Below, piece after piece: positions 37,219-52,962 of a DNA stretch of 64,000 nucleotides. Source of the DNA: Nocardia nova SH22a (GTDB lineage Bacteria > Actinomycetota > Actinomycetes > Mycobacteriales > Mycobacteriaceae); assembly GCF_000523235.1 (NCBI RefSeq), contig NZ_CP006850.1, forward strand, positions 6,634,001 to 6,698,000, in the 5' to 3' direction. Numbering within the stretch: position 1 is the stretch's first letter; each line of letters begins with the position of its first letter. Below the pieces are notes generated by a model. It was not told the origin of the DNA. It was given only the letters and a program-made list of their open reading frames with translations, and made no database searches. The position numbers were made by a program, and so were the translations under genes.

Positions 37219-37247
37219 CTACGCTTTCGAGCGAGGACGGGATACGG

Positions 37248-39289: not shown

Positions 39290-40462
39290 GTGACGGGAAA
39301 ACCAACCGCCGAGATCATCGGCGCCGGGATCGGCGGATTGACCGCGGCGACTGCATTGGCACAGCGAGGATGGCAGATCCGGCTACATGAACGGGAGTCC
39401 GAGATCCGGGCGATCGGAGCCGGAATCTATGTGTGGGGCAACGGCTTGGCGACCTTGCGCGCCCTCGGCCTCCACGACGAGGCGGTGATCGGCGCCCATA
39501 TCGGGCCGACGCTGGAAAGCCGGGATCGTCGCGGGCGCACGGTCGAGCGGCTGACCATCAACGGGCCGGATCAGCCGCAGGTGAAAACCATCATGCGGGA
39601 CAGGCTGATTCGCACCCTGGTGGCGGGCGCGGTCCGGGCGGGCGTCGAGATCCGCACCGGGTCGGAGATCGTCGCGGCCGACCCGGCCGGCGCGGTGTTC
39701 GACAGCGCCGGCACCCGCTTCGGCGCGGATCTGGTGGTGGCCGCCGACGGTGTCAACTCCCGTATCCGCGACACCCTCGGCGTGCCGATGCGGCGAATCC
39801 GCTCCACCCAGGGCGCGATTCGCCTGACTGTGCCGTGGACCCAGGAATTCGTCGCGCCCGAGGATCGCGGCAGCTACCTGGAGTTCTTCAGCGGCCGTCG
39901 GCGAGTGCTCTATACACCCAGTAGCGCCGAGCACCTCTACGTGGCGTTGGTCGCCGACACGTCCGACACCGCCGCGACCACGGTACCCATCGATGTGGAC
40001 AGCTGGGTGCGCTCTTTTCCCGCCCTCGAAACCCTGATTCGCAGCCTCGCGGAGGTTCCCGGCCGCTGGGATACGTTCGAATTCATTCGGCTTCGGCGCT
40101 GGTCGACGGGCCGGGTGGCTTTCCTCGGTGATGCCGCCCACGCCCAGCCGCCCTATCTGGGCCAGGGCGGCGGGTGCGCGATGATGAACGCACTCGGTCT
40201 GGCCGACGCGGTATCCGCTGCGCCCCAAGCGATTACGAAGGCCCTCGGGGTGTGGGAAGCCACGGAGCGCCCCACCATCGAACACACCCAGCGCTGGTCC
40301 TACGGGCTGCGGCTGCTCAACAACCTGCCCGATGCCGCCCGGTCCCCGCTACTTCGCACCGTGGACCGGATGCCGATACTCGGCCGATCCCGACTCCGGG
40401 CCGCGGTCACGATCCCCACCGGCTGCGACGCGTTCGCGGCCGCCGAAAGGACCTCCGAATGA
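39290..40462 (+). CDS. aqdB: FAD-dependent aromatic monooxygenase, AqdB-like
   Basis: A 390-residue single-component flavoprotein hydroxylase: GAGIGGLTAATALAQRGW FAD motif at the N-terminus, the mid-protein DG motif VVAADGVNSRIRD and the GD motif FLGDAAHAQPPYLGQGGG. The GTG at 39290 has AGGA seven bases upstream. Its ATGA overlap with a Hod/Qdo-type dioxygenase, which is itself followed by an alpha/beta hydrolase, reproduces the gene content of the aqd operons of Rhodococcus and Mycobacteroides. There AqdB 3-hydroxylates 2-alkyl-4(1H)-quinolones (HHQ to PQS). The substrate assignment comes from this context rather than from sequence alone. Confidence 0.7.
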   Translation: MTGKPTAEIIGAGIGGLTAATALAQRGWQIRLHERESEIRAIGAGIYVWGNGLATLRALGLHDEAVIGAHIGPTLESRDRRGRTVERLTINGPDQPQVKTIMRDRLIRTLVAGAVRAGVEIRTGSEIVAADPAGAVFDSAGTRFGADLVVAADGVNSRIRDTLGVPMRRIRSTQGAIRLTVPWTQEFVAPEDRGSYLEFFSGRRRVLYTPSSAEHLYVALVADTSDTAATTVPIDVDSWVRSFPALETLIRSLAEVPGRWDTFEFIRLRRWSTGRVAFLGDAAHAQPPYLGQGGGCAMMNALGLADAVSAAPQAITKALGVWEATERPTIEHTQRWSYGLRLLNNLPDAARSPLLRTVDRMPILGRSRLRAAVTIPTGCDAFAAAERTSE

Positions 40463-41274
40463 GATTCCCCGCCCTGCGCACCCTCGAGGTGAACGGCTAC
40501 CCGATCAGCTACGACGAGCACGGCGAAGCGAAGCATCCGACGGTGGTGCTGCTGAGCGGCTGGTGCCAGGACCATCGACTGTTCGATCCGCTGGTGCCGC
40601 TACTCACCACCGATCATCATGTGCTGCGCGTCGATTGGCGTGGGCACGGCGAAGATCGTTCCCCCATACCGGATTTCGGTCCCGATGAGCAGGCCGCCGA
40701 CACCCTCGCCGTTCTGGACGCACTGGGTGTGGATCGTTTCCTGCCCGTCTCCACCTCCCACGGCGGCTGGGCGAACCTGGAGATCGCCGAGCGTGCCGGC
40801 GCGCCACGGGTTCCGGACGTCATCGTGATCGACTGGCTGCAGACGCCCGCCAGTCCCGAATTCCTGGCAGATCTGGCCGCCAGCCGCAGCGAACACTGGC
40901 GGGCGGCCCAGCGCGCGCTGTTCGATATCTGGCTTGCCGGAAGCCGCAACGAACTGGTCCGCAACCATCTCGACAAGGAAATGGCCGAGTTCGACCACGA
41001 CATGTGGGCTCGCTCCTGCGACGTCATCGCCGCCGCGTACGACCGCTGGGACTCGCCGCTGCAGCGGATGCTCGCCCTGTCCGGCGAACACACGGTGCGG
41101 CATCTCTTCTCGCAGCCCACCGCACGGGATTACCTTGCGGCCCAGTCGGATTTCGGCGACTCCCATCGGTGGTACTCGCACAAGTTGCTGGGTGGTGACA
41201 CCCACTTCCCCACCCTCGATTCCCCCGATCTGGTAGCAGCCGAGATCCGGGCCGCGACCTCGGCACGGATGTGA
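40459..41274 (+). CDS. aqdC: cofactor-free 2,4-dioxygenase of the Hod/Qdo/AqdC group
   Basis: A 271-residue alpha/beta-hydrolase-fold protein that closely follows, from memory, the Arthrobacter 3-hydroxy-4-oxoquinaldine 2,4-dioxygenase Hod along its length: LSGWCQDHR, DWRGHG, PDFGPDEQ, LPVSTSHGGW (Ser100 and His101), the IDW aspartate (Asp125), RHLFSQPT and GGDTHFP (His249, the catalytic base position). Such enzymes cleave 3-hydroxy-4(1H)-quinolones with O2 and release CO, without metal or cofactor. Between an FAD monooxygenase and a formamidase-like hydrolase, the best match is AqdC, the PQS dioxygenase. The ATG overlaps the preceding stop (ATGA). A 2-methyl or unsubstituted quinolone could be the true substrate. 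Confidence 0.82.
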   Translation: MRFPALRTLEVNGYPISYDEHGEAKHPTVVLLSGWCQDHRLFDPLVPLLTTDHHVLRVDWRGHGEDRSPIPDFGPDEQAADTLAVLDALGVDRFLPVSTSHGGWANLEIAERAGAPRVPDVIVIDWLQTPASPEFLADLAASRSEHWRAAQRALFDIWLAGSRNELVRNHLDKEMAEFDHDMWARSCDVIAAAYDRWDSPLQRMLALSGEHTVRHLFSQPTARDYLAAQSDFGDSHRWYSHKLLGGDTHFPTLDSPDLVAAEIRAATSARM

Positions 41275-41278
41275 CCGG

Positions 41279-42172
41279 ATGAGCGACCCCCACATCGACG
41301 ATGCGTTCAATGTGCGAAATACAGTGCCGCCGAAGGTTTTCGACGCCACCATCGCCGCGTACCGCAGGCGCTCCGATCAGGCCGTCGCCGGTCTGCCCGG
41401 GATACCGGATCTGGTCTACGATCCCGAGAGCGGGCAGCGCCTCGATATCTGGGGAACCGCCCCCGGCGAACTACGCCCGGCGTTCCTGGCCATTCATGGC
41501 GGATATTGGCGCATGCTCTCCCGCCACGACACCGCCTTCATGGCCCGCCCCCTCGCCGATGCCGGAATAGCCACGGTCGCGATCGATTACGGGCTGGCCC
41601 CTGCCACCACGCTGGAGGAGATCGTGCGCCAGGTCCGCACCGCAGTGGCCTGGGTCCATCACCACGGCACGGCGCACGGTCTCGACCCGCATCGCATCAC
41701 CGTGGGCGGCAGCTCGGCCGGTGGCCACCTCACCGCGTCTGTCATGGTCCGGGGCTGGCACGCCGACTTCGCGGTGCCCGTCGATGTCGTGAAGGCCGCG
41801 GCCCCACTCAGCGGACTGTTCGACCTGCGCCCCCTGGTCGACTCCTTCGCCAACGAGTGGCTCGGACTCACGCCTGCTCGGGCAGCCGCCCTGAGCCCGC
41901 AACTGCACGCCGATCAGCCCGGCCCGCCGGCCCTCATCGCGGTCGCAGCCGCCGACGGCACCGGATTCCTGCACCAGAGCCGCGTTTTCCACGACTCCTG
42001 GTCTCGTCACTCCCCCAGCACCCTGCGAATCATCCCTGCCCGCAACCACTACGACCTGTTCCTGGACCTGGCCGACCGGCAATCGATCCTCACCCACGAT
42101 CTGATCGCGCTCATCGAAGCAACCGCCATCCGTTCGCCCGCGCCCTCCTCCACGGCGACACCGCACGACTGA
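41279..42172 (+). CDS. aqdA: alpha/beta hydrolase, AqdA-like N-acylanthranilate hydrolase
   Basis: A 297-residue alpha/beta hydrolase related to kynurenine formamidases and HSL-type esterases: oxyanion motif HGGYW (residues 73-77), nucleophile GGSSAGG (Ser146), acid Asp226 in AAADGTG and His257 in ARNHYDL. In aqd operons AqdA hydrolyses the N-acylanthranilate released by AqdC to anthranilate and a fatty acid. The gene begins four bases after the dioxygenase stop and is the last of the three-gene operon. A terminator follows at 42194. Aryl-formamidase activity is the main alternative. Confidence 0.72.
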   Translation: MSDPHIDDAFNVRNTVPPKVFDATIAAYRRRSDQAVAGLPGIPDLVYDPESGQRLDIWGTAPGELRPAFLAIHGGYWRMLSRHDTAFMARPLADAGIATVAIDYGLAPATTLEEIVRQVRTAVAWVHHHGTAHGLDPHRITVGGSSAGGHLTASVMVRGWHADFAVPVDVVKAAAPLSGLFDLRPLVDSFANEWLGLTPARAAALSPQLHADQPGPPALIAVAAADGTGFLHQSRVFHDSWSRHSPSTLRIIPARNHYDLFLDLADRQSILTHDLIALIEATAIRSPAPSSTATPHD

Positions 42173-42440: not shown

Positions 42441-43886
42441 CTAGGCGGTGGTGTATGCCTGGGCAAAGTTGGCGGAGGCGGTGCGTTCGGCCTGGGAGAA
42501 CCAGCCGTAGATCTCCGCGTCGGAATACTTCGGTAGCATCGCCGCGGCCTTCTCCAAGCGATCGAGGGCGGCATTCGCTTCGGTACGCACGGTATTCCGA
42601 TCGACGCCGACCAGGACACCGTCCTGCTTGCGAATGACGCCGTTGACCATGACGGTGTCCACATCGGCGGCAGTGGACTGCAACACCACCGAACCGGCCG
42701 GGTAACTCGAACGCACCAGATCCATGCGCGGCCGCACCACGATCACATCGGCCTTCTTGCCGACGGTCAGCGACCCGATCTCGTCGGCAAGCCCGATGGC
42801 GGCGGCGCTGTTGTGGGTGGCCCAGGTGAGCGCGTCGCGCACACCGAGATCGACTGTGGTGGGCATGGTTCCGGTGGCGTGTACCCGATCGTGGTCGAGG
42901 CAACGCTGGAATTGCAGGCCGAGGCGCATCTGCGAGAACAGGTCGCCGGAGCCGACGCACACGATGTCGGTGCTGATGCCGGGGGCCAGCCCGTGGTCGA
43001 GGGCGGCGCGGAACGGCGGATGCCCCATGCCCATCTGCATCTCGGTTTCCGGCGCGATGGTGACCTTGCCGCCGGTGTCGGCGATCAGCTGCCACTCCTG
43101 ATGGTTGAGCGCCGGACAGTGGATGTGCAGATGGCCGGGCAGCAGCAGTTCCCGGTCGTCGAGTTCACGCAGTCCGCGCAGCAGGATCGACGAGGTCGCC
43201 GCGCCCGTGTGGGAGGCTCCCACGATGCCGAGTTCGCGTACCCGCCGGATCTCCGCGGCCGTCTCCTCGAAGGAGACGGTGCCGAAGTCGCTGTAGAGCA
43301 TGGCCATGCGCGACATATCGTCGTCGGAAGCGAAGTGCGAGCCGCGCAGGGCCGAGGCGTCCGCCAGGCGCGCCGCGTGCCCGTCGAACGCGGGCGGCCG
43401 ATAGTCGTACTGCTGCATCCCGTACGCGTATACCGACCGGATTCCGGTCGCCCGCAGCGCTTCCACGTCGGCGCGGGCGTGGTCGGGGCTGTTGACGCAG
43501 TCGTGGCAGTCGAAGATCGTGGTCACGCCGGCGTCGAGGGCTTCCAGTGCGCCGACCGTGGACGCCGCGGCGGCGTCCTCCGGCTGCACGACCGAGCCGA
43601 TGCCGTAGAAAGTGGTGGCCAGGAACTGCATGAGCGACTGATCGGCGGAGATGCCGCGCAGCAATGCCATCCAGGTATGGCGATGGCTGTCGATCATGCC
43701 CGGCAGGATGTAGCCGCCGCGCGCGTCCACCACCCGCGCGTCCACACCGGCGAATTCGTCGGCCGAGCGCGCGATGGCGATGATCCGGTCGCCCTCCACG
43801 AGCACCGCGCCCTCGGGAAGGTCCCCGAATTCGGGATCCATGGTGATGATGTGCCCGCCGGCGATGACGGTTTTCTCGAGACTCAT
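42441..43886 (-). CDS. deaminase-type amidohydrolase, paralogue 1
   Basis: A 481-residue amidohydrolase of the cytosine deaminase/TrzN/8-oxoguanine deaminase subgroup: an N-terminal beta sandwich with GGHIITMDPEFGDL, the H-x-H metal motif in GMIDSHRHTWMALLRG, HIHCPALNHQEW and the catalytic aspartate in GISTDIVCVGSGDLF. The ATG at 43886 starts the homology and GAG lies five bases upstream. It is strikingly similar along its whole length to the protein encoded at 51502-52962. It is divergent from the LysR gene across a strong palindrome. Deamination or dechlorination of a nitrogen ring is typical of the group; the substrate here is unknown. Confidence 0.85.
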   Translation of the reverse strand: MSLEKTVIAGGHIITMDPEFGDLPEGAVLVEGDRIIAIARSADEFAGVDARVVDARGGYILPGMIDSHRHTWMALLRGISADQSLMQFLATTFYGIGSVVQPEDAAAASTVGALEALDAGVTTIFDCHDCVNSPDHARADVEALRATGIRSVYAYGMQQYDYRPPAFDGHAARLADASALRGSHFASDDDMSRMAMLYSDFGTVSFEETAAEIRRVRELGIVGASHTGAATSSILLRGLRELDDRELLLPGHLHIHCPALNHQEWQLIADTGGKVTIAPETEMQMGMGHPPFRAALDHGLAPGISTDIVCVGSGDLFSQMRLGLQFQRCLDHDRVHATGTMPTTVDLGVRDALTWATHNSAAAIGLADEIGSLTVGKKADVIVVRPRMDLVRSSYPAGSVVLQSTAADVDTVMVNGVIRKQDGVLVGVDRNTVRTEANAALDRLEKAAAMLPKYSDAEIYGWFSQAERTASANFAQAYTTA

Positions 43887-43975
43887 GTGTGCTCGCGCTT
43901 TCTGCTCGTTTCGGGAAACGGTGTGCACCGATATTCACCCGGACGAGACATGTCACGCTAATGCTTGTTCGACAA

Positions 43976-44003
43976 TCCGGCATACCTGTTCAGGTATGCC
44001 GGA
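43976..44003. promoter_or_regulatory. 28-bp palindrome, probable LysR operator with CATACC/GGTATG
   Basis: Perfect 13-base arms TCCGGCATACCTG and CAGGTATGCCGGA flank a central TT. It lies about 90 bases upstream of both the amidohydrolase (minus) and the LysR gene (plus). The CATACC/GGTATG half-sites recur in the divergent region 50092-50181 upstream of the nba-like operon and the P450, suggesting the same regulator. Confidence 0.7.
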
Positions 44004-44098
44004 GTCTCCCGGTTAGATATGCGTTAATTGGTATGGCGAACAGAGAAATTCTGCCGATTCGGATATCGCGGGCAATCCCGCCGATTTACGATGCGCGA

Positions 44099-45055
44099 AT
44101 GGATCTACCCCGATTGCTCGATGGTCGCTTGAAGCTACGGCACCTGGTGCTGGTGGACGCGCTCACCCGGCACGGCAGTGTGGTGGGCGCGGCCGCGGCC
44201 CTGCACGTCACCCAGCCGGTCGCCACCCGCAGCCTGCACGATCTGGAAGCCATTCTGGGCGTGGACCTCTACGACCGCGGCCCGCGCGGCATCACGCCGA
44301 CCATCTTCGGCGACGCGTTCACCACGCACGCGCGCGCGGTGCTGGCCCAGCTCGACCAGGCCGGGCGGCACGTGGTGGAACTGGCCCGCGCCGATCGCGG
44401 CACCGTGGTCGTCGGCTCGCACCTGGCTGGATCGAATGTGCTGCTGCCGCGCGCCATCGCCCGCCTGAAGTCGGAGCATCCGCTGCTCACCGTCGTGGTG
44501 CGGGAGGGCTCCCCCGAGGCGCTGCTGGTCGAATTGGAATCCGGCCGGGTGGATCTCATCGTCGGCCGCCTGACCGCCCCCTCCGACGAGACCGCCATGC
44601 GCGGCGCCCTCTACGACGAGTCGGTGGAACCGGTGACCCGGGCCGGCCATCCGCTGACGGTGCGCGGCACGGTCACCATCGCCGATCTCACCGCCTACCC
44701 GTGGATTCTGCCGGGCACCGGTACCTCGCTGCGGCTGGAGCTGGAGAAGTTCTTCGCGCGCAACGGCATTCCGCTGCCGGAGAACCGGGTCGAAGCCACC
44801 TCGTATCTGACCGTCCGCCAGCTGCTGCTGGAGACCGACATGATCGCGGTGCTGCCGAGCCTGATCGCACGCGGCGACACCCGCCTGGCTCCGCTGCCGG
44901 TACCGCTCGACACCATCGGTCACAGTGTCGGCCTCACCATTCCGGCCACCCGGACTCCGACGCCCGCCGCGGAGGCCCTCATCGCCTCGCTCAACCGGGT
45001 GGCCACGGACATGCGGAAACCGGGCGGCGTCCAAGACGCCGCCCGGTGGCGGTAA
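44099..45055 (+). CDS. nbaR: LysR-family regulator, probable nba pathway activator
   Basis: A 318-residue LysR regulator: helix-turn-helix LVLVDALTRHGSVVGAAAAL followed by TQPVATRSLHDLEAILG, then an effector domain with VVVGSHLAGSNVLLP. The ATG at 44099 begins the homology. It ends six bases from the convergent end of the ACMSD gene and is divergent from the first deaminase paralogue. In the Pseudomonas fluorescens KU-7 nba cluster the regulator nbaR also follows nbaD, although here it is on the opposite strand. The CATACC palindrome upstream is its likely site. The effector is probably a pathway acid such as 3-hydroxyanthranilate. Confidence 0.8.
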   Translation: MDLPRLLDGRLKLRHLVLVDALTRHGSVVGAAAALHVTQPVATRSLHDLEAILGVDLYDRGPRGITPTIFGDAFTTHARAVLAQLDQAGRHVVELARADRGTVVVGSHLAGSNVLLPRAIARLKSEHPLLTVVVREGSPEALLVELESGRVDLIVGRLTAPSDETAMRGALYDESVEPVTRAGHPLTVRGTVTIADLTAYPWILPGTGTSLRLELEKFFARNGIPLPENRVEATSYLTVRQLLLETDMIAVLPSLIARGDTRLAPLPVPLDTIGHSVGLTIPATRTPTPAAEALIASLNRVATDMRKPGGVQDAARWR

Positions 45056-45061
45056 CACGGT

Positions 45062-46057
45062 TCAGCTCAGGCCCAGGAACCGTTCGGCATTGCCGCGCGC
45101 GATCAGCCCGCGCGTGGCCTCGTCGAGAAACTCGCTCTTGCGCACCACATTTCCGACGGGACGCTCCCCCAGCGGGTAGGGATAGTCGCTGCCGACCATC
45201 ACCCGCTCCGGCCCGACGGTCCCCACCAGTAGCCGCAGCGCGCGCTCGTCGAAGACCACCGAGTCGACGTAGAATCGGCCGAGGTAGTGCGACGGCGGAT
45301 ACTGCGAGGTGCCGATCACATCGTGCCGGTTGTGCCAGGCGTTCTCCATCCGGCCCAGCCAGAACGCGAAAGATCCGCCGCCGTGGGCGAATCCGATGCG
45401 CAGCCGATCGTCGATGCGGTCGAAGACGCCGCCGAGCACCAGCGCCAGGATCGACAGGTGGGTCTCGGCCGGCATCGCGGTCAGCCACTGCGCCATCCAG
45501 CGATCCAGCCGCGGCGAACCCGCCATGTCCCAGGGGTGCACGAACACCGGCACGTTCAGGTCCGCACAATGCTGGAGGAAGGTGACCACCCCCGCGCTGT
45601 CGAGATCCTGGTCGCCCACATGGTTGCCGATCTCCACACCGCGATGACCGTTGGCCACACAGCGTTCCAGTTCCCGGCAGGCGGCGTCGGGATCCTGCAG
45701 CGGCACCTGGCAGAAGGGCAGCAGCCGGTCCGGCGCGGGTGCGACGATCTCCAGGGCCAGGTCGTTGAAGATCCGGGCGATGCGTTCGGCCTGTGGCGCG
45801 CTGCGGCCGTAGTTGAAGAACGCCGGGGTCGGCGACACCACCTGGATGTCCACCCCATCGGCGTCCATGTCCGCGAGCCGCCGCTCGGCCAGCCAGCAGT
45901 CGTCCCGGATGCGCCGGAACTCTCTGGACCCCATCATGATCATGGCCTCGGCCTCGGAATCGATCCGCAGCCAGGGCGCGTCGGCTCCGCCCTCGGCGGT
46001 CAGGTCCGGCCAGCCCCTGGGCACGTAGTGGGTGTGGATATCGATCATCCGCTCCAT
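45062..46057 (-). CDS. nbaD: 2-amino-3-carboxymuconate-6-semialdehyde decarboxylase
   Basis: A 331-residue zinc enzyme of the ACMSD family, converting 2-amino-3-carboxymuconate-6-semialdehyde to 2-aminomuconate-6-semialdehyde. Zinc and catalytic residues are in place: DIHTHYVP (His8, His10), VHPWDM (His174), AHGGGSFAF (His225) and GSDYPYPLGE (Asp291). It matches the Pseudomonas NbaD pattern from memory (QVPLQD, GNHVGD, AMPAET). It begins three bases after the 3-hydroxyanthranilate dioxygenase gene and closes the minus-strand operon. Confidence 0.93.
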   Translation of the reverse strand: MERMIDIHTHYVPRGWPDLTAEGGADAPWLRIDSEAEAMIMMGSREFRRIRDDCWLAERRLADMDADGVDIQVVSPTPAFFNYGRSAPQAERIARIFNDLALEIVAPAPDRLLPFCQVPLQDPDAACRELERCVANGHRGVEIGNHVGDQDLDSAGVVTFLQHCADLNVPVFVHPWDMAGSPRLDRWMAQWLTAMPAETHLSILALVLGGVFDRIDDRLRIGFAHGGGSFAFWLGRMENAWHNRHDVIGTSQYPPSHYLGRFYVDSVVFDERALRLLVGTVGPERVMVGSDYPYPLGERPVGNVVRKSEFLDEATRGLIARGNAERFLGLS

Positions 46058-46060
46058 GCG

Positions 46061-46582
46061 CTACCCCTTGCCCGGATGCAGCGTGCCGCAGGCGGGGCAC
46101 GTGCGCGCCTGCTCGTCGGCGTAGAAGGCGGTGAAGACCGGTGGCAGGTCGGCGACGATATCGCGCACCTGCAACTGCACCTCGTGCACCAGCCCGGAAC
46201 AGTTCGGGCAGTACCACTGGAACTTCTCGAGAGTGCCTTCCGCGCGCACCCGCTCGATGACCAGGCCGATGGATCCGTCCTGGGGCCGCTGCGGTGAATG
46301 CGGCAGATTGCCGGGCAGCAGCCAGGTTTCCCCCTCCCTGATGTGCACGGTCTGCTCCCCTTCCGCCGTCATCACGTTGACGTGGATATCGCCCTTGATC
46401 TGATAGAACCACTCCTCGTAGGGATCGACGTGAAAGTCGGTGCGCTGGTTGGGTCCGCCGACCACCTGCACGATGAAGTCGCTGCCCAGCGCCATGGTCT
46501 TGTTGTTGACCGGTGGCCGCAGCTGATCGGCGTGCTCGGCGATCCACTCGGCGAAATCTATGGTGGGCGGGATGGCGGTCAT
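46061..46582 (-). CDS. nbaC: 3-hydroxyanthranilate 3,4-dioxygenase
   Basis: A 173-residue cupin dioxygenase that opens the ring of 3-hydroxyanthranilate. Iron ligands are His51 and Glu57 in [11 protein letters not shown] and His95 in [13 protein letters not shown]. The C-terminal rubredoxin-like site has CPNC (Cys125, Cys128) and CPAC (Cys162, Cys165), as in bacterial enzymes. The ATG overlaps the stop of the RidA gene (ATGA). It acts directly before NbaD. Confidence 0.95.
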
Positions 46583-47016
46583 TGCACTGCCTCCGGTCGG
46601 GTGCGGTCGATGTGTGCGATGCCCTGCATTTCGATGAGCAGGTGCGGATGTGGAAGCTGATGCACCGCGACGGTGGTGCGCGCCGGGCCGGCTTCGTCGA
46701 AGTATCCGGCGTACACCTCGTTGTAGCCGCCGAAGTCGTTCATCGACACCAGATACGTGGTCACCTGTACGAGATCGCCCAGGTCCGCGCCGACCTCGCG
46801 CAGGATGGCGCGCATGTTCTCGAGCACGGCCCGGGTCTGGACACGGATGTCGAGTTCGGTCACCCCGAACTCGTCGGCGCTCGCCCCGGCGAAGGTGTTG
46901 TCCGGCCGCCGGGAACTGGTGCCGGACACGAAGATCAGATCGCCGACCACCTTCACGTGTGGAAAACGCCCGCGCGGCACCGCCATTCCGGCGACGACGT
47001 GGGCCTCGGCGCTCAT
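46579..47016 (-). CDS. nbaF: RidA-family 2-aminomuconate deaminase
   Basis: A 145-residue RidA/YjgF-fold protein ([53 protein letters not shown]) that in this context hydrolyses 2-aminomuconate to 4-oxalocrotonate and ammonia. Its ATG would overlap the expected stop of nbaG (ATGA). In the sequence as given, nbaG is frameshifted and reads into this gene in frame (see 47013-47796), but the protein can still be made from its own start. Its stop overlaps nbaC. Confidence 0.85.
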
Positions 47017-47796
47017 GCGCGCCCGCCGATCGCGGTCAGGCCCACCCGGCCGAGCCCGGCCACCTCGCACTTCGGCCACACCGGGTGTCAGCGGGACGGC
47101 CGTGGTCGCCGCGCCCGCCAGGATCACCTGACCGGCGCGCAGGGCGAATCCTCGTGCGCGACACAGCCGGACGAGGGCGTGCAGCGCGCGGATCGGATCA
47201 CCGAGAATGGCGGCCGTGGAGCCCACCGTCTCGTGCTCGCCCATGCGCAACCGCACGGCGCTGTTGGGGACCGCGCGCAGCGGCTGCCACGGCCCGATCA
47301 CGAAGGCGGCGGCGGAGGTGTTGTCGGCGACCACGTCGGTGTGGGTGAAGCGGAAGTCGCGATAGCGGGAGTCGATGACCTCCATCGCCGGGGCGACGGC
47401 ATCCACGCACGCCTCGATATCGACCTCGGGATCGGCCGGGTCCACCGCGCGCGAAAGCCGGTACGCCACTTCGGGTTCGATCTTGGGGTGAATGAACCGC
47501 GACAGGTCGAGTTCACCGCCGTCGGGCACCCGCATGGCATCGGTGAGGCGTCCGGCGATCACCTCCGACACCCCCATTTGCGCCATCTTCTCCCGGCTGG
47601 TGAAGCCGAGCTTGAGCCCGGCCGCGCGCTCACCGCGGCCCAGGCGGCGCGAGAACAGCGCGTTCTGGATGGCATAGGCATCGTCCAGGCCGAACGTGTA
47701 CTCGTCGGCGAGGCTGGCCACGTCGGTGACCGTACGCTGCGCCAGGTCGAGTCGATCGGCCAGGCGGTCGAGGTCGATGACCGTGCAAGACTTCAT
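47013..47796 (-). pseudogene. nbaG: 4-oxalocrotonate decarboxylase with a 3'-terminal frameshift
   Basis: The frame from the ATG at 47796 (GGAG six bases upstream) encodes a 2-oxo-acid decarboxylase/hydratase-family protein: [70 protein letters not shown]. Right after VAEV one extra base (G on the plus strand at 47067) shifts the frame. Removing it restores [17 protein letters not shown] and a TGA at 47013 overlapping the nbaF ATG. As written, the frame instead continues into nbaF, giving a chain of about 400 residues. It decarboxylates 4-oxalocrotonate to 2-oxopent-4-enoate. All catalytic residues precede the shift, so activity may remain; a sequencing error is equally possible. Confidence 0.8.
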
Positions 47797-48599
47797 TTCC
47801 CGCTCCCCGCGTCGATCACTGCTTCCACTTCGCCCAGTCCGTCCAGCCGCAGCCGGTATCGGCCGGGCCCGGCGATGGGCACCATGGGGCCCAGGGCCCC
47901 CGACATGACGACATCCCCCGCGAGCAGCGGCTGCCCACGCGAGGCGAGTTCGCGCGCCAGCCACGCCACCGCCACCACCGGCGAGCCCAGGCAGGCATGG
48001 CCCGCGCCGAAGGACACCGGTTCGCCGTCGCGTTCGAGCACCATGCCGACCTGGGAGAGGTCACGGTCACGCAGGGAAAACGGGGCCGTGCCCAGCACCA
48101 CCGCGCCGCTCGAGGCATTGTCGGCGACGGTGTCGACGATGGTGAGGTCCCAGCCGGTGACGCGAGAGTCGACGATCTCGATGGCGGCGAGCACGAAGTC
48201 GGTGGCGCGCAGCACATCCGCCACGGTGGCGCCGGGCCGGTCGAGATCCGCGCCGAGCACGAAGGCGATCTCACCCTCCGCGCGCGGCTGCAGAAACCGT
48301 TTGTGCGCCAGCGGTTCCCGATGTCCGACGACCATATCGTCGAGCAGAATCCCGAAATCGGGGCGGAACACCCCGAACTGCTGCTGCACGACCGGAGCCG
48401 TCAGGCCGATCTTCGCGCCCACCGGCCGCGCGCCCGCCCGCACTCGGGCCGCGACCACCTCGCCCTGCACCGCGTAGGCGCGATCGATATCGCTGTCGCC
48501 CAGCAGATCTCGCACCGGCGCGCAGGTCATCCCGGTGCGCGCGGCCTCCGACAGCCGCTCGGCGGCGCGTACGACCGCCGTCTTCTCATCGAATGTCAC
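47793..48599 (-). CDS. nbaH: 2-oxopent-4-enoate hydratase
   Basis: A 268-residue member of the 2-keto-4-pentenoate hydratase family: [72 protein letters not shown]. It adds water to 2-oxopent-4-enoate to give 4-hydroxy-2-oxovalerate. The start is a GTG in a GTGA overlap with the dehydrogenase stop; the stop overlaps nbaG (ATGA). It is a paralogue of nbaG, and I assign the two by operon order and by the NbaG-type start; their roles could be swapped. Confidence 0.82.
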
Positions 48600-50068
48600 A
48601 GTTGCACACACACATTCGTCGGTTCGGTATAGAAGTGCAGCGAGGATTCGCCGCCCTCGCGCCCGATGCCCGAGAGCCCCGCCCCGCCGAAGGGCGAACG
48701 CAACTCCCGTGCGAACCAGGTGTTGACCCAGGAGATGCCGGCCCGCATGGCCCCGGCGACCCGGTGCCCGCGGCGCAGGTCGTTGGTCCACACCACGGCG
48801 GCCAGGCCGTAGTCGGTGTCGTTGGCGAGCCCGATGGCCTCGTCCTCGGTGTCGAAGGGCACCAGCGCGGCCACCGGCCCGAAGATCTCCTCACGCAGCA
48901 CCCGGTCGGCATTGGTGAGCCCGGTCCACAGGGTCGGCTCGATCCAGGATCCCCCGGCCAGATCCGGGCCCAACTCCGGAATCCCGCCGCCGGTCAGCAC
49001 TTTCGCCCCCGACTGCTCGGCCAGGGCCAGGTAGCGCAGCACCTTGTCGCGGTGCGCGTGGGAGATGAGCGGACCGGTGGTGGTCGCCGCATCCTGCGGT
49101 GAGCCCAGCCGCAGTCCGCGCGCCCGCTCGGCGAGCCCGTCGGCGATATCGGCGAAGATGCCGCGCTGCACGTAGATTCGCTCGGTGCACAGGCACACCT
49201 GGCCGGTGTTGGCGAACACCGACCGGCTCAGCCCGTCGAGGGTCTCCCCGAGGTCCACATCGTCGAACACCACCGCCGCGTTCTTGCCGCCCAGTTCGAA
49301 AGACACCGGGCGCACCCGCGGCGCGACGGTTCTCATCACGTGCGCGCCGGTCGCCGACGACCCGGTGAAGGTGACCCCGTCGATGCCGGGATGAGTGGTC
49401 AGGAACTCCCCGGCCGAACCGGCCCCGAAGCCGTGCAGCACGTTGTAGACCCCGGCCGGCAATCCCACCTCGGCCAGCACCTCGGCCAGCAGGGTCGCCG
49501 TCGACGGCGTCTCCTCGCTCGGTTTGACCACCACCGCGTTGCCGCAGGCCAGGGCCGGGGCCACCTTCCAGGTGAGCAGCAGCAGCGGCAGATTCCACGG
49601 CACGATCACCGCCACCACGCCGAGCGGTTTGCGCAGCGCGTAGTTCAACAGCGTGCGCCCGTCCGGCAATTCGGTGAGGAACGACTCCTGCCCGGCCGCG
49701 GCCACGATGTCGGCGAAGGTCCGGAAGTTCGTGATGGCCCGCGCCACATCGAGTTCGCGGGCCTGCGCGACCGGCTTGCCGGTATCGGCGACCTCGGCGG
49801 CCACGAATTCCTCGAACCGTTCCGCGATCCGATCCGCGGCCCGCCGCAGCAGGGCCGTGCGCTCACGCACGGGCGTCGCCGCCCACCGTTCGCCCGCCCG
49901 CCGCGCCGCCAGCACCGCCCGATCCACCAGTGCCGCGTCCGCCTCGTGCACCCGGCCCACCGGTGCTCCGGTGGCCGGGTCGAGGGTGTCGAAACCGCGC
50001 TCCGGGTCCGGATCGACGTATCCGCCGTCCACGTAATTGCGAATCCAGCGTTCGCTCGAACTGGTCAT
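48596..50068 (-). CDS. nbaE: 2-aminomuconate-6-semialdehyde dehydrogenase
   Basis: A 490-residue aldehyde dehydrogenase with PWNLPLLLLTWKVAPAL, GVTFTGSSATG, ELGGKNAAVVF (catalytic glutamate) and NTGQVCLCTERIYV (catalytic cysteine), a pattern typical of 2-hydroxy/2-aminomuconic semialdehyde dehydrogenases. It oxidises the NbaD product to 2-aminomuconate with NAD. It is the first gene of the six-gene operon, every following junction being an overlap or a three-base gap. The promoter region is shared with the divergent P450 and carries CATACC-type half-sites. Confidence 0.9.
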   Translation of the reverse strand: MTSSSERWIRNYVDGGYVDPDPERGFDTLDPATGAPVGRVHEADAALVDRAVLAARRAGERWAATPVRERTALLRRAADRIAERFEEFVAAEVADTGKPVAQARELDVARAITNFRTFADIVAAAGQESFLTELPDGRTLLNYALRKPLGVVAVIVPWNLPLLLLTWKVAPALACGNAVVVKPSEETPSTATLLAEVLAEVGLPAGVYNVLHGFGAGSAGEFLTTHPGIDGVTFTGSSATGAHVMRTVAPRVRPVSFELGGKNAAVVFDDVDLGETLDGLSRSVFANTGQVCLCTERIYVQRGIFADIADGLAERARGLRLGSPQDAATTTGPLISHAHRDKVLRYLALAEQSGAKVLTGGGIPELGPDLAGGSWIEPTLWTGLTNADRVLREEIFGPVAALVPFDTEDEAIGLANDTDYGLAAVVWTNDLRRGHRVAGAMRAGISWVNTWFARELRSPFGGAGLSGIGREGGESSLHFYTEPTNVCVQL

Positions 50069-50091
50069 GCACTCATGATCAGAGCCAAATC

Positions 50092-50181
50092 CATACCTCA
50101 CAAATGCGAATTCGCGCGGCTTCCATACCCGGCCGGATATACCGCCCGGACCAGGTGGCGAGCCATTTCCGAACGGGTATG
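50092..50181. promoter_or_regulatory. divergent regulatory region with CATACC/GGTATG half-sites
   Basis: CATACC occurs at 50092-50097 and 50124-50129, GGTATG at 50176-50181. The second CATACC is part of a near-perfect 16-base palindrome (ATACCCGGCCGGATAT, 50125-50140, one mismatched pair). The region separates nbaE (minus) from the P450 (plus). The half-sites equal those in the perfect palindrome at 43976-44003. Confidence 0.6.
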
Positions 50182-50279
50182 CCCCGGCCTCGAATAGGCA
50201 TTTCCGGCACATGGGCACGCGGTACCACACTGGCCGAACCCGGGTGCTGCCCGGTCCCGATCGAAAAGGGGTTCGCCAC

Positions 50280-51470
50280 GTGACAACCCAGTCCTCGCCC
50301 ACCGTTCCGGTCTACGACCTCGACCTCTACGACGCCGCCGCCATCGCCGATCCGTACCCGCACTACCGGGCACTGCGCGACCTCGGCCCGGTCGTATGGC
50401 TGCCGCGGCACGGGGTCTACGCCCTGCCCCGCTACGCGCAGGTCCGCGCCACCCTCGCCGACGACGACACCTTCCGCACCTCCTTCGGCGTCTCACTGAA
50501 CCCCGAATACGGTGCGCTGCTGGAGGGTTCGACCTTCGCCAGCGACGGGTCGCGACACCGCTTCCTGCGCGGCGTGGTAGCCCAGGAACTCGCCCCGCGC
50601 AAACTGCGCGGCATCACCGAGCGGGTGGCCGCGACCGCCGACACAGTCGCGGACGAGCTGCTGGCCGGCGGCGAATTCGACGCCGTCACCGATCTGGCCC
50701 GGCGCATGGTGCTGGCCATCGTCCCCGACTTCATCGGCATCCCCGAGGACGGGCGCGAACATCTGGTCGATTGGGCCGCAGCCAATTTCAACTGTCACGG
50801 CCCGCTCAACGCGCGTGCCCGCGCGTCCATGACCGAATCCGGATGCATGGCCGCCTACGCGCAGCGGCTGGTAGACGAACGCGCCGCGCAGCCCAGTGGC
50901 GTCGCCCATCGAGTACTCGAGGCTCTCGATCGCGACGAGATCGATGCCGGGCAGGCGGTCTCGCTCATGATCGACTATCTCGCACCGTCACTGGACACCA
51001 CCGTCACCGGAATCAGCACCGCCATCTGGCTTTTCGGTCGATATCCCGAGCAGTGGCAGCGGGTGCGCGAGGATCCCGCGCTGATTCCGCACGCCTTCAA
51101 CGAGGTGCTGCGCTTCGAAACGCCCGTGCGGGCCTTCGGCCGCCGCGTCTCCCGCGACACCGAGATCGCCGGAACCGTTGTCCCGCAGGGGGCGCAGGTA
51201 CTGATCCTGTTCGCCTCCGCCAATCGCGATGAGCGCAAATGGGACCGCGCCGACGTCTTCGACGTCGGCCGCAAACCCACCGACCACGTCGGTTTCGGCT
51301 ACGGCGTGCACGGGTGCGTCGGGCAGGGTCTGGCCCGTCTGGAGACCCACACGCTGCTCGCCGCCCTGGCTCGGCGCGTCGAACGCTTCGAGGTGGGCGG
51401 CGAACGCTGGGCGATCAACAACCTCATGCGCGCCCTCGACACCGCGCCGACCCGCGTGCACGCGGCCTGA
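50280..51470 (+). CDS. cytochrome P450, aromatic-acid type
   Basis: A 396-residue soluble bacterial P450. The heme loop is FGYGVHGCVGQGLARLE, the K-helix motif is NEVLRFETPVRAF and the I-helix region reads YLAPSLDTTVTG, where the usual A/G-G-x-D/E-T-T appears as A-P-S-L-D-T-T. This overall pattern recalls the CYP199 group that oxidises benzoate-type acids. The GTG start has AAGGGG upstream. It is divergent from the nba-like operon across shared half-sites and is followed after 31 bases by the second deaminase paralogue. A plausible role is hydroxylation of an aromatic acid such as anthranilate to feed 3-hydroxyanthranilate into the pathway; this is inference. No ferredoxin gene is adjacent. 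Confidence 0.85.
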   Translation: MTTQSSPTVPVYDLDLYDAAAIADPYPHYRALRDLGPVVWLPRHGVYALPRYAQVRATLADDDTFRTSFGVSLNPEYGALLEGSTFASDGSRHRFLRGVVAQELAPRKLRGITERVAATADTVADELLAGGEFDAVTDLARRMVLAIVPDFIGIPEDGREHLVDWAAANFNCHGPLNARARASMTESGCMAAYAQRLVDERAAQPSGVAHRVLEALDRDEIDAGQAVSLMIDYLAPSLDTTVTGISTAIWLFGRYPEQWQRVREDPALIPHAFNEVLRFETPVRAFGRRVSRDTEIAGTVVPQGAQVLILFASANRDERKWDRADVFDVGRKPTDHVGFGYGVHGCVGQGLARLETHTLLAALARRVERFEVGGERWAINNLMRALDTAPTRVHAA

Positions 51471-51501
51471 CCCCCACCCCTCAGCAGACAGGCGAAAAAT
51501 C

Positions 51502-52962
51502 ATGAGCGGCAACAAGACTCTCATCACCGGCGGTCACGTCATCACCATGGACCCCGCCCTGGGCGATCTGGCCGGCGGCGCGGTCCTCATCGAGGACGAC
51601 CACATCCTGACCGTGACACGCGACGCCGCCGAACTCGACACCGTGGACGCCGAACGCATCGACGCCACCGGCGGCTACGTGCTGCCCGGCATGATCGACT
51701 CCCACCGGCACACCTGGCTGGCGCTGCTGCGCGGCATCTCCGGCGACCAGTCCCTGCTGGAATTCCTGGCCACCACCTTCTACGGCATCGGCGCGAAGAT
51801 GACCGCCGAGGATCTGGCCACCGCCTGCCGCGTCGGCGCGCTGGAGGCCCTCGACGCCGGGGTGACCACGATCTTCGACTGCTGCGACTGCGTCAACACC
51901 CCCGAGCACGCCGAGGCCAATGTGGAAGCCTTGCGCGCCAGCGGTATTCGCTCCGTCTACGCCTACGGCATGCAGCGCTACGACTACGAGCCACCCGCCT
52001 TCACCGCGCACGCCCAGCGTCTGGCCGACGCCGCCCGGCTGCGGGGTCACCTCTTCGCCGCCGCCGACGACATGTCCCGCATGGGCATCCTCTACAGCGA
52101 TTTCGGCACCGTCCCCTTCGACGCCACCGCCGCCGAGATCCGCCTGGCCCGGGAGCTGGGCGTCTTCGGGGCCTCGCACACCGGGGCGGCCACCACCTCG
52201 ATCCTGCTGCGCGGCCTGCGCGAACTGCACGACCACGGCCTGCTGCTGCCCGGTCACCTGCACGTCCACGTCAACGGTCTCAACGCCCAGGAGTGGCAAC
52301 TGCTGGCCGACTCCGGTGCGGTCGTCACCACCTCGCCGGAAACCGAATTGCAGATGGGCATGGGCATGCTGCCGCTGCGCCCAGCCCTGGACCACGGCAT
52401 GGCACCCGGCGTCGGCACCGACAGCATCATCTGCGGATCGGGAGACCTGTTCTCCGCCATGCGATTGGGCCTGCAACACCAGCGCTGTATGGACGCCGCG
52501 CCGGTGCACGCCGGCGGAACCATGCCGCTGACAGTCGATCTGGGCGTCCGTGACGCGCTCACCTGGGCCACGCACAACGGCGCGCACATCGTCGGTATGG
52601 ACAACCGGCTCGGTGCGCTCACCTCCGGCTACAAGGCCGACGTGATCGTCGTCAAGCCCCGCTGGAACCTGGTCCGTTCCAGCTACCCCGCCGCCAGCGT
52701 CGTCCTGCAATCCACCGCCGCCGACGTCGACACCGTTCTCGTCAACGGCATCGTCCGCAAACGCGACGGCCGGCTCACCGGCGTCGATCTCGACGCTCTC
52801 CGCAAGCAAGCCGACACCACCCTGGACCGGATCGAGACGGCGGCCGCGACCCTGCCCGTGTATTCGACCGCTGACCTGCGCGACTGGTATGGCCAAGCCG
52901 AACGCACCGCAACCGCTTACTACGCCCGGGCATACCCCGACGCCTTGACCGCTCAGGTGTAG
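51502..52962 (+). CDS. deaminase-type amidohydrolase, paralogue 2
   Basis: A 486-residue amidohydrolase nearly colinear with the product of 42441-43886: GGHVITMDPALGDL, GMIDSHRHTWLALLRG (H-x-H metal motif), VYAYGMQRYDYEPPAF, and the aspartate region GVGTDSIICGSGDLF. It lies 31 bases after the P450 and is probably co-transcribed with it. The preserved metal ligands in both copies argue that both are active. Substrates of the subgroup are aminated or halogenated nitrogen rings and related compounds. A terminator-like hairpin follows at 52966. Confidence 0.85.
   Translation: MSGNKTLITGGHVITMDPALGDLAGGAVLIEDDHILTVTRDAAELDTVDAERIDATGGYVLPGMIDSHRHTWLALLRGISGDQSLLEFLATTFYGIGAKMTAEDLATACRVGALEALDAGVTTIFDCCDCVNTPEHAEANVEALRASGIRSVYAYGMQRYDYEPPAFTAHAQRLADAARLRGHLFAAADDMSRMGILYSDFGTVPFDATAAEIRLARELGVFGASHTGAATTSILLRGLRELHDHGLLLPGHLHVHVNGLNAQEWQLLADSGAVVTTSPETELQMGMGMLPLRPALDHGMAPGVGTDSIICGSGDLFSAMRLGLQHQRCMDAAPVHAGGTMPLTVDLGVRDALTWATHNGAHIVGMDNRLGALTSGYKADVIVVKPRWNLVRSSYPAASVVLQSTAADVDTVLVNGIVRKRDGRLTGVDLDALRKQADTTLDRIETAAATLPVYSTADLRDWYGQAERTATAYYARAYPDALTAQV

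What the first reader, a model, noticed from the sequence alone, without database searches (positions are those of the whole stretch)
39290..42172. aqdBCA-like operon: predicted degradation of alkylquinolone quorum signals
Three genes joined by an ATGA overlap and a four-base gap encode an FAD monooxygenase, a protein closely resembling the cofactor-free dioxygenase Hod (Ser100, Asp125 and His249 all in place) and an HGGYW/GGSSAGG hydrolase. This is the content of aqd operons that turn HHQ into PQS, cleave it with CO release and hydrolyse the N-acylanthranilate. Order here is B-C-A and no AqdR-type TetR gene is adjacent. If correct, the host can silence Pseudomonas signalling.
Basis: partly seen in the sequence, partly recalled or inferred. 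Interest (0 to 1): 0.85.

Follow-up and report, generated by a model that had tools for sequence, protein, structure and literature searches.

The report
Quinolone-cleaving operon beside hydroxyanthranilate pathway
Three linked genes in this Nocardia-like bacterium look like a CO-releasing route for breaking open a 4-quinolone ring, but their relatives, active-site residues and neighbours suggest that the ring fragment is 3-hydroxyanthranilate from a small hydroxylated quinolone rather than a Pseudomonas quorum signal.

Summary
In detail: an FAD monooxygenase (B), a cofactor-free 3-hydroxy-4-quinolone dioxygenase (HQD, C) and an N-acylanthranilate-amidase-like hydrolase (A) form one tight operon. 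The aqd/quorum-quenching reading is only partly supported. A is 55% identical to the third gene of the quinaldine (meq) operon and unlike AqdA1/AqdA2; the order B-C-A is that of meq; no AqdR is adjacent; C lies outside the AqdC clade. C's pocket residues match QDO (2-unsubstituted substrate) at 19 of 22 positions: HOD His38/His100 are Gln/Thr, and HOD Met177 is kept where four Aqd-type references have Ala/Ser. 3-Hydroxyanthranilate (3-HAA) dioxygenase (HAO), within a 3-HAA meta-cleavage gene set, lies 4.8 kb from C. HAO neighbours HQD in 27 of 69 related loci in three phyla, and in 0 of 13 AqdR/AqdA2-type loci. Five same-genus genomes carry A beside a 3-HAA cluster without a match to C. The genome has no tryptophan-dioxygenase match and no kynureninase over cut-off. 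Best explanation: catabolism of an 8-hydroxylated, 2-unsubstituted 4-quinolone via N-formyl-3-HAA (confidence 0.55). No activity was measured; the residue pattern may rest on few evolutionary events.

The parts
39290..40462 (+). B: FAD-dependent aromatic monooxygenase, predicted quinolone 3-hydroxylase (AqdB/MHPCO-like)
   Evidence: MHPCO 5e-72; 57% Nfa_B, 51% pAL1_B, 50% AqdB2, 49% AqdB1
40459..41274 (+). C: cofactor-free 3-hydroxy-4(1H)-quinolone 2,4-dioxygenase, QDO-type pocket (Q37/T99/S100/M175/H249)
41279..42172 (+). A: N-acyl(anthranilate) amidase-like alpha/beta hydrolase, HGGYW...GGSSAGG
   Evidence: 54.7% to third gene of the pAL1 quinaldine operon; homologues beside 3-HAA genes in 5 same-genus genomes
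42441..43928 (-). AMH1: metal-dependent amidohydrolase (PRK08204 subfamily), frequent partner of window-type HQDs; the Glu of two deaminase relatives aligns with Thr or Ala
   Evidence: (400 bits, cut-off 391)
43889..45055 (+). LysR-type regulator (PcaQ-like, below cut-off); real start probably about 44096
   Evidence: LysR genes also found in many related loci
45062..46057 (-). 2-amino-3-carboxymuconate-6-semialdehyde decarboxylase (ACMSD)
   Evidence: 1.9e-102 to solved ACMSD
46061..46582 (-). 3-hydroxyanthranilate 3,4-dioxygenase (HAO)
   Evidence: 257.6 bits, equivalog cut-off 220
46579..47964 (-). one open frame holding a RidA-type (2-aminomuconate deaminase-like) protein and, upstream in the same frame, a 4-oxalocrotonate decarboxylase-like protein
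   Evidence: decarboxylase 188 bits, below the 350 cut-off
47793..48791 (-). 2-oxopent-4-enoate hydratase-like protein
   Evidence: 265 bits, below the 350 cut-off
48596..50302 (-). 2-hydroxymuconic/2-aminomuconic semialdehyde dehydrogenase (start about 50070)
   Evidence: 740.6 bits, TIGR03216 cut-off 693
50211..51470 (+). cytochrome P450, shared with the Streptomyces KL109B locus
51229..52962 (+). AMH2: second amidohydrolase, 69% identical to AMH1 (start about 51499)

Best explanation
The B-C-A operon is the upper part of a catabolic island for a small 4(1H)-quinolone that carries a hydroxyl at C8 and little or nothing at C2 (simplest candidate: 4,8-dihydroxyquinoline, possibly derived from xanthurenate). 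B puts an OH on C3. C, a cofactor-free dioxygenase, deprotonates that OH with His249/Asp125, lets O2 bridge C2 and C4, and releases CO, leaving N-formyl(acyl)-3-hydroxyanthranilate. A hydrolyses the amide to 3-hydroxyanthranilate, which the nearby HAO-ACMSD-dehydrogenase-deaminase-decarboxylase-hydratase genes degrade towards central metabolites. Shown by sequence: enzyme families, catalytic residues, QDO-type contact residues, linkage to 3-HAA genes. Inferred: the substrate, the 8-OH, the identity of the acyl group, and any role of AMH1/AMH2 and the P450.
For: (1) HAO lies within the held flanks of 27 of 69 HQD loci from a genome-wide scan: Actinomycetota 3 of 32, Bacillota 2 of 9, Pseudomonadota 22 of 28; and in the window. 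The 10 HAO proteins tested, of those 27, all pass the HAO equivalog cut-off. (2) In L067 (Mesorhizobium) B, C, A, a DHDPS-family gene and HAO run on one strand with short gaps, followed by ABC-transporter genes; B is the only monooxygenase among the families recognised there. (3) Five other genomes of the genus carry A (63-65% identical) beside ALDH-OCD-RidA-HAO-ACMSD although none of them matches C at E 1e-30. (4) No tryptophan dioxygenase match and no kynureninase over cut-off in the genome, with positive controls, so no kynurenine route to 3-HAA was found. (5) C's contact residues match solved QDO, including Gln/Thr for HOD His38/His100; 28 of 28 HAO-linked loci (window included) carry Thr100 with Gln (27) or Arg (1) at 38, and 0 of 24 His/His loci have HAO. 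(6) A resembles kynurenine formamidase around HGGYW, which would suit an N-formyl product.
Against: QDO itself has the Gln/Thr pair and, as recalled, feeds an anthranilate pathway, so the pair says something about C2, not about 8-OH; and 22 of the 49 Gln/Thr loci show no HAO in the held flank. The Gln/Thr-HAO association may rest on very few events: one clade for the Gln/Thr rows is not rejected (p-AU 0.308) and only 1-2 independent pairs exist. 22 of the 27 HAO-linked loci are Pseudomonadota, mostly close kin. In the window the 3-HAA genes are on the opposite strand, not in the operon. B was not found in 17 of 76 loci, among them the nearest relative L015 and the HAO-linked L043; 5 of the 17 have an HsaA-family gene, 12 neither. 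No anthranilate 1,2-dioxygenase over cut-off, but no control genome passed that cut-off either; a partial anthraniloyl-CoA-monooxygenase-like hit (339 bits, cut-off 1078) exists, so anthranilate degradation is not excluded. The P450 could hydroxylate a later intermediate.
Confidence: 0.55

Rival explanations
1. A meq/QDO-like operon for a plain 4-quinolone (4-hydroxyquinoline or 4-oxoquinaldine) whose product is anthranilate; the 3-HAA cluster is an independent neighbour, or is reached after a separate anthranilate 3-hydroxylation (for example by the P450).
For: Order B-C-A and A as in pAL1; QDO-type residues; a P450 in the island; HsaA-type genes in six related loci; a partial anthraniloyl-CoA-monooxygenase-like match in the genome.
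Against: HAO linkage recurs in three phyla with different gene orders; A is linked to HAO in five same-genus genomes without a match to C; no anthranilate dioxygenase over cut-off (no control over cut-off) and no quinaldine 4-oxidase homologue at E 1e-20 (no positive control); no monooxygenase besides B among the families recognised in L067.
Confidence: 0.25
2. An aqd-type operon that degrades HHQ and PQS to anthranilate and quenches Pseudomonas signalling.
For: C is 46% identical to the HQD-locus protein of N. farcinica, a species whose HQD cleaves PQS (PMC8961568); B is 57% identical to its AqdB-type neighbour; AqdC1 shows that PQS cleavage occurs outside the AqdC clade (PMC8961568).
Against: No AqdR or AqdA homologue, different gene order, C and B outside the Aqd2-type clades; Met at HOD-177 where the four Aqd-type references have Ala/Ser; HOD, which also has Met177, has low PQS activity (PMC8961568); 0 of 13 AqdR/AqdA2-type loci have HAO.
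Confidence: 0.12
3. C is not an oxygenase in vivo but a hydrolase/esterase with an intact Ser-His-Asp triad.
For: Ser100 is retained and the fold is that of hydrolases.
Against: 40-46% identity to HQDs; HOD W36, H102, W160 and W185 positions are kept; it sits in an operon with a monooxygenase and an amidase.
Confidence: 0.03

Closest known systems
meq quinaldine operon of Arthrobacter sp. Rue61a pAL1 (FAD monooxygenase - hod/meqE - hydrolase)
   Same: Gene order B-C-A; A 54.7%, B 51%, C 45% identical; an MFS gene follows in pAL1 and in the related Streptomyces KL109B locus.
   Different: No quinaldine 4-oxidase match in the genome (no positive control); C has Gln/Thr where HOD has His38/His100; the linked lower pathway is 3-HAA meta-cleavage, not CoA-thioester anthranilate degradation (PMC3534580, passages).
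QDO, 1H-3-hydroxy-4-oxoquinoline 2,4-dioxygenase of Pseudomonas putida 33/1 (PDB 3ibt)
   Same: Of the 22 positions listed, 19 are identical (all but HOD 143, 156 and 188), including the Gln/Thr pair and Met177.
   Different: QDO sits elsewhere in the tree, near Serratia/Comamonadaceae (support 86); anthranilate as its pathway's product is recalled.
aqdRABC / aqdA1B1C1 of Rhodococcus erythropolis BG43 and M. abscessus
   Same: Same enzyme classes B and C and same overall chemistry.
   Different: Order A-B-C in both BG43 clusters, AqdR present (aqd2 type), AqdA of other families, small residue at HOD-177, no HAO in the AqdR/AqdA2-type loci.
nba-type 3-hydroxyanthranilate meta-cleavage pathway
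   Same: HAO, ACMSD, semialdehyde dehydrogenase, RidA, 4-oxalocrotonate decarboxylase and hydratase families all present.
   Different: Here it lies next to a quinolone-cleaving operon; genes of nitrobenzoate reduction were not searched for.

Membership tests
cofactor-free 3-hydroxy-4-quinolone 2,4-dioxygenases (HQD) | Full-length similarity to HOD/QDO/AqdC and His-Asp dyad with nucleophile-elbow Ser/Ala | tested here: met
   S100, D125, H249; E about 1e-66 to 1e-73
cofactor-free 3-hydroxy-4-quinolone 2,4-dioxygenases (HQD) | O2-dependent CO-releasing ring cleavage without cofactor | not testable with these tools
   needs enzyme assay
aqd operon | AqdR-type TetR regulator adjacent | tested here: not met
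   no TetR family among the 19 ORFs scanned; nearest regulator is LysR-type
aqd operon | AqdA (type B carboxylesterase as AqdA2, or AqdA1) in order A-B-C | tested here: not met
   WIN_A 30% over 105 aa to AqdA2, 32% over 112 aa to AqdA1; order B-C-A
aqd operon | Dioxygenase inside the AqdC clade | tested here: not met
   (quick trees, SH-aLRT 100): AqdC clade without the window; AqdC1 also lies outside it
aqd operon | HHQ and PQS turnover | not testable with these tools
   needs assay
meq (quinaldine) operon | Order monooxygenase-HOD-amidase and homologous amidase | tested here: met
meq (quinaldine) operon | Quinaldine 4-oxidase (QoxLMS) genes | tested here: inconclusive
   QoxL has no match at E 1e-20 in the genome, but that call had no positive control; QoxM and QoxS were not sought in the genome
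QDO-type specificity (2-unsubstituted substrate) | Gln/Thr at HOD 38/100 with Met177 | tested here: met
   that this pair sets C2 specificity is inference
3-hydroxyanthranilate meta-cleavage pathway | HAO and ACMSD present | tested here: met
   HAO over equivalog cut-off; ACMSD 1.9e-102
3-hydroxyanthranilate meta-cleavage pathway | Semialdehyde dehydrogenase, deaminase, decarboxylase and hydratase | tested here: met
   dehydrogenase over its cut-off, decarboxylase and hydratase match their families below the equivalog cut-offs

The most novel reading that the evidence does not exclude
Many HQDs outside the AqdC clade are upper-pathway enzymes of an undescribed aerobic route for 8-hydroxylated 4-quinolines (xanthurenate or 4,8-dihydroxyquinoline from tryptophan turnover) that drops CO and formate and enters the 3-hydroxyanthranilate pathway, spread over three bacterial phyla. 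Quorum-signal cleavage would be a derived specialisation within that family, with AMH-type amidohydrolases preparing a further-substituted precursor.
Probability: 0.4. Interest if true: 0.65.

Novelty: new variant of a known kind. Interest (0 to 1): 0.5.

Why it matters
If right, it gives a physiological role to HQD-family genes that might otherwise be read as quorum-quenching, names residue positions (HOD 38/100 and 177) as candidate predictors of substrate class, and predicts a microbial sink for 8-hydroxyquinolines of the tryptophan pathway. It also warns against reading every HQD operon as a Pseudomonas-signal quencher.

Tried and rejected
Kynurenine pathway as source of 3-HAA: no tryptophan dioxygenase match, no kynureninase over cut-off. 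Quinaldine as substrate: no QoxL match (no positive control) and HOD's His/His replaced. Canonical heteroaromatic deaminase for AMH1: the Glu of the two deaminase relatives aligns with Thr (4f0r) or Ala (7ww2), so I do not assign deamination. I first read the Gln/Thr pair as a pocket for a 2-carboxylate (xanthurenate itself); the QDO control showed the pair in an enzyme for a 2-unsubstituted substrate, so I dropped that. The B-ring position HOD-143 (Ser in the window) does not track HAO: the 22 loci with HAO alone have Ile or Leu. Lineage-independent test of the Gln/Thr-HAO link: too few independent pairs. No formal null model for HAO proximity was run. The trees are quick ones with SH-aLRT support only.

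Literature: 10 paper searches ran, full text of the held PMC library only. Those bearing on xanthurenate or on HQD together with 3-HAA (59: 15 of 91 listed; 82: 6 of 6; 83: 10 of 826; 84: 10 of 125; 92: none found; 93: 2 of 2) listed no paper whose title or abstract start describes this pathway; for the capped lists I saw only the part listed. Papers opened: PMC5332414 (abstract, sections 3 and 17), PMC8961568 (abstract, sections 3 and 19), PMC10548524 (abstract, sections 4 and 6, passages), PMC3961685 (passages), PMC3534580 (passages), PMC6479552 (term search without occurrence). The HQD-subfamily paper in AEM (doi tried) is not held and was not read. No structure prediction or docking was run.
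Full report
WHAT IS THERE. The three ORFs are as described: B 39290-40462, C 40459-41274 (ATGA overlap) and A 41279-42172 (4-base gap), all on +. C is an HQD: solved AqdC, HOD and QDO match at 5e-73, 2e-72 and 3e-66, with Ser100, Asp125 and His249 aligned to HOD S101/D126/H251. B is an FAD aromatic hydroxylase whose best solved relative is the N-heteroaromatic oxygenase MHPCO. A is an alpha/beta hydrolase whose best two solved relatives are a lipase and kynurenine formamidase. The window lies in an 8.35-Mb single-contig genome. The name Nocardia is inferred from named relatives of C and from N. farcinica-type loci turning up in the genus search; no tool named the organism.

IS IT AN AQD OPERON? 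I compared the three proteins with references fetched from plasmid records. Identities: B 57% N. farcinica locus, 51% pAL1 (quinaldine), 50% AqdB2, 49% AqdB1; C 46% N. farcinica, 45% HOD, 43% AqdC1, 40% AqdC2; A 54.7% over 278 aa to the third gene of the pAL1 quinaldine operon, but 32% over 112 aa to AqdA1 and 30% over 105 aa to AqdA2. The order B-C-A is that of pAL1; BG43 has A-B-C in both clusters. In quick trees of C the AqdR/AqdA2-linked dioxygenases, with AqdC2, the N. farcinica locus and solved M. abscessus AqdC, form a clade (SH-aLRT 100) without the window; the window pairs with Saccharopolyspora elongata (97-98). In the B tree the AqdR/AqdA2-linked proteins are likewise one clade (100) without the window, whose own place is unresolved (with a long-branch warning). 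AqdC1, which cleaves PQS (PMC8961568), groups with HOD and not with the AqdC clade, so being outside that clade does not by itself exclude PQS.

WHAT THE NEIGHBOURS SAY. Downstream lie an amidohydrolase (AMH1), a LysR gene and, on the other strand, ACMSD, HAO, RidA, 4-oxalocrotonate decarboxylase, hydratase and semialdehyde dehydrogenase genes, then a P450 and a second amidohydrolase: a 3-HAA meta-cleavage gene set. C and HAO are 4793 bases apart in an 8.35-Mb genome; by simple arithmetic a single gene falls that near by chance about once in a thousand. A scan of one genome for each of 84,980 species gave 69 HQD loci. HAO (at least 40% identical over more than half its length) lies in the held flank of 27 of 69, AMH1/AMH2-type (at least 55%) in 18 of 69, AqdR or AqdA2 in 10 of 69. 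Counting the 6 plasmid loci and the window, 76 in all, none of the 13 AqdR/AqdA2 loci has HAO or AMH. Some flanks are cut by contig ends, so these are minimum counts. HAO-linked loci fall in Actinomycetota (3 of 32), Bacillota (2 of 9) and Pseudomonadota (22 of 28). The Streptomyces KL109B locus holds nearly the window's gene set, rearranged: AMH2, P450, B, C, A, MFS, AMH1, LysR, ALDH, OCD, RidA, HAO, ACMSD, with MFS added and no hydratase shown. In Mesorhizobium L067 B, C, A, a DHDPS-family gene and HAO run on one strand with short gaps, followed by ABC-transporter genes (families). All 10 HAO proteins tested, of those 27, pass the equivalog cut-off.

AN INDEPENDENT LINE. Among 150 genomes of the genus (own included) C rings at 1e-30 in 13, of which only the own genome is above 50% identity; HAO rings at 1e-20 in 10; AMH1 at 1e-100 only in the own genome, twice. 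A rings at 1e-30 in 19, at 63-65% identity in five genomes besides the own one (two of these five matches contain one in-frame stop) and at 34-38% in the rest. All five have HAO, none is among the 13 with C, and in all five A lies beside ALDH-OCD-RidA-HAO-ACMSD. So A keeps company with 3-HAA catabolism even without the dioxygenase. Conversely HAO clusters without A also exist in the genus (L111-L113). The own genome has no tryptophan dioxygenase match and no kynureninase over cut-off (each family rang over cut-off in 2 of 14 control genomes). No anthranilate 1,2-dioxygenase passed the cut-off either, but neither did any of the 14 controls, and a partial anthraniloyl-CoA-monooxygenase-like match exists, so an anthranilate route is not excluded.

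THE POCKET. HOD's 19 ligand contacts are listed in PMC10548524 (passage). At these the window differs from HOD at H38Q, H100T, L143S and G189C; from QDO only at 143, 156 and 188 among the 22 positions (the 19 plus three more). The four Aqd-type references have a small residue at HOD Met177 (AqdC Ser, AqdC1 Ala, AqdC2 Ser, N. farcinica Ala); window, HOD and QDO have Met. HOD's PQS activity is low (PMC8961568, section 3). Across 76 loci the pair 38/100 is Gln/Thr in 49, Arg/Thr in 1, His/His in 24, Gly/Ala in 1 and Gln/Val in 1. The 28 HAO-linked loci are 27 Gln/Thr plus the Arg/Thr one, and none of the 24 His/His loci has HAO; 22 of the 49 Gln/Thr loci show no HAO in the held flank. QDO, whose substrate has no C2 substituent, is also Gln/Thr. 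That corrected my first idea that the pair binds a 2-carboxylate: the simplest reading is that Gln/Thr goes with a bare C2 and His/His with 2-methyl or 2-alkyl. The pattern may reflect very few evolutionary events (three changes on the tree; one clade not rejected, p-AU 0.308), although in the tree the window, L015 and L016 fall on the side that holds the His/His rows (99).

MECHANISM. B places OH on C3. B was not found in 17 of 76 loci, including the nearest relative L015 and the HAO-linked L043; in 5 of these 17 an HsaA-family gene, a phenol ortho-hydroxylase type, lies nearby (six loci in all; of three tested, two pass the HsaA cut-off and one, L025, does not), and in 12 neither was seen, so another hydroxylase, a gene outside the flank or a ready-made 3-hydroxy substrate must be assumed there. 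C removes C3 as CO and leaves an N-formyl(acyl)anthranilate; A hydrolyses it. The linked pathway starts with 3-HAA, which requires an OH at quinolone C8. 4,8-Dihydroxyquinoline and xanthurenate are tryptophan-pathway products (recalled). The substrate assignment is inference; AMH1, AMH2 and the P450 remain without an assigned step.

VERDICT. No activity has been shown here.

Noticed in passing
L067 12.7-20.4 kb and other Rhizobiales loci (e.g. L045, L057): The Rhizobiales HQD-HAO loci show no ACMSD or RidA match in the held flank but carry a DHDPS-family gene, an aldehyde dehydrogenase (SSADH-like in L060), branched-chain-type ABC importer genes and, in some, an aspartate-dehydrogenase-like gene: possibly a different lower route for the HAO product.
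   Followed up: partly
window 42441-43928 and about 51499-52962: Two PRK08204-type amidohydrolases, 69% identical, flank the island; the Glu of two deaminase relatives aligns with Thr or Ala in AMH1, so the chemistry is unclear. AMH-type homologues lie near HQD in 18 of 69 loci.
   Followed up: partly
L106-L110 (five same-genus genomes): The amidase A beside a 3-HAA cluster (with an MFS gene detected in three of the five) and no match to C in the genome: perhaps catabolism of an imported N-acyl-3-hydroxyanthranilate.
   Followed up: partly
window 35581-38930: Aspartate 4-decarboxylase and a membrane protein that I take for an AspT-like antiporter (recalled, not scanned) directly upstream of B on the same strand; neither showed in the other HQD loci.
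   Followed up: no
L041 12685-15012, L051: A molybdenum-hydroxylase-like protein (29-31% to QoxL) between A and HAO in two Nitratireductor loci, a candidate N-heteroarene hydroxylase.
   Followed up: no
L025, L026, L031, L035, L039, L040, L042: In these Bacillota HQD loci a BD-FAE-type hydrolase may take the place of A; an EamA-type transporter family is also found in Bacillota loci.
   Followed up: no
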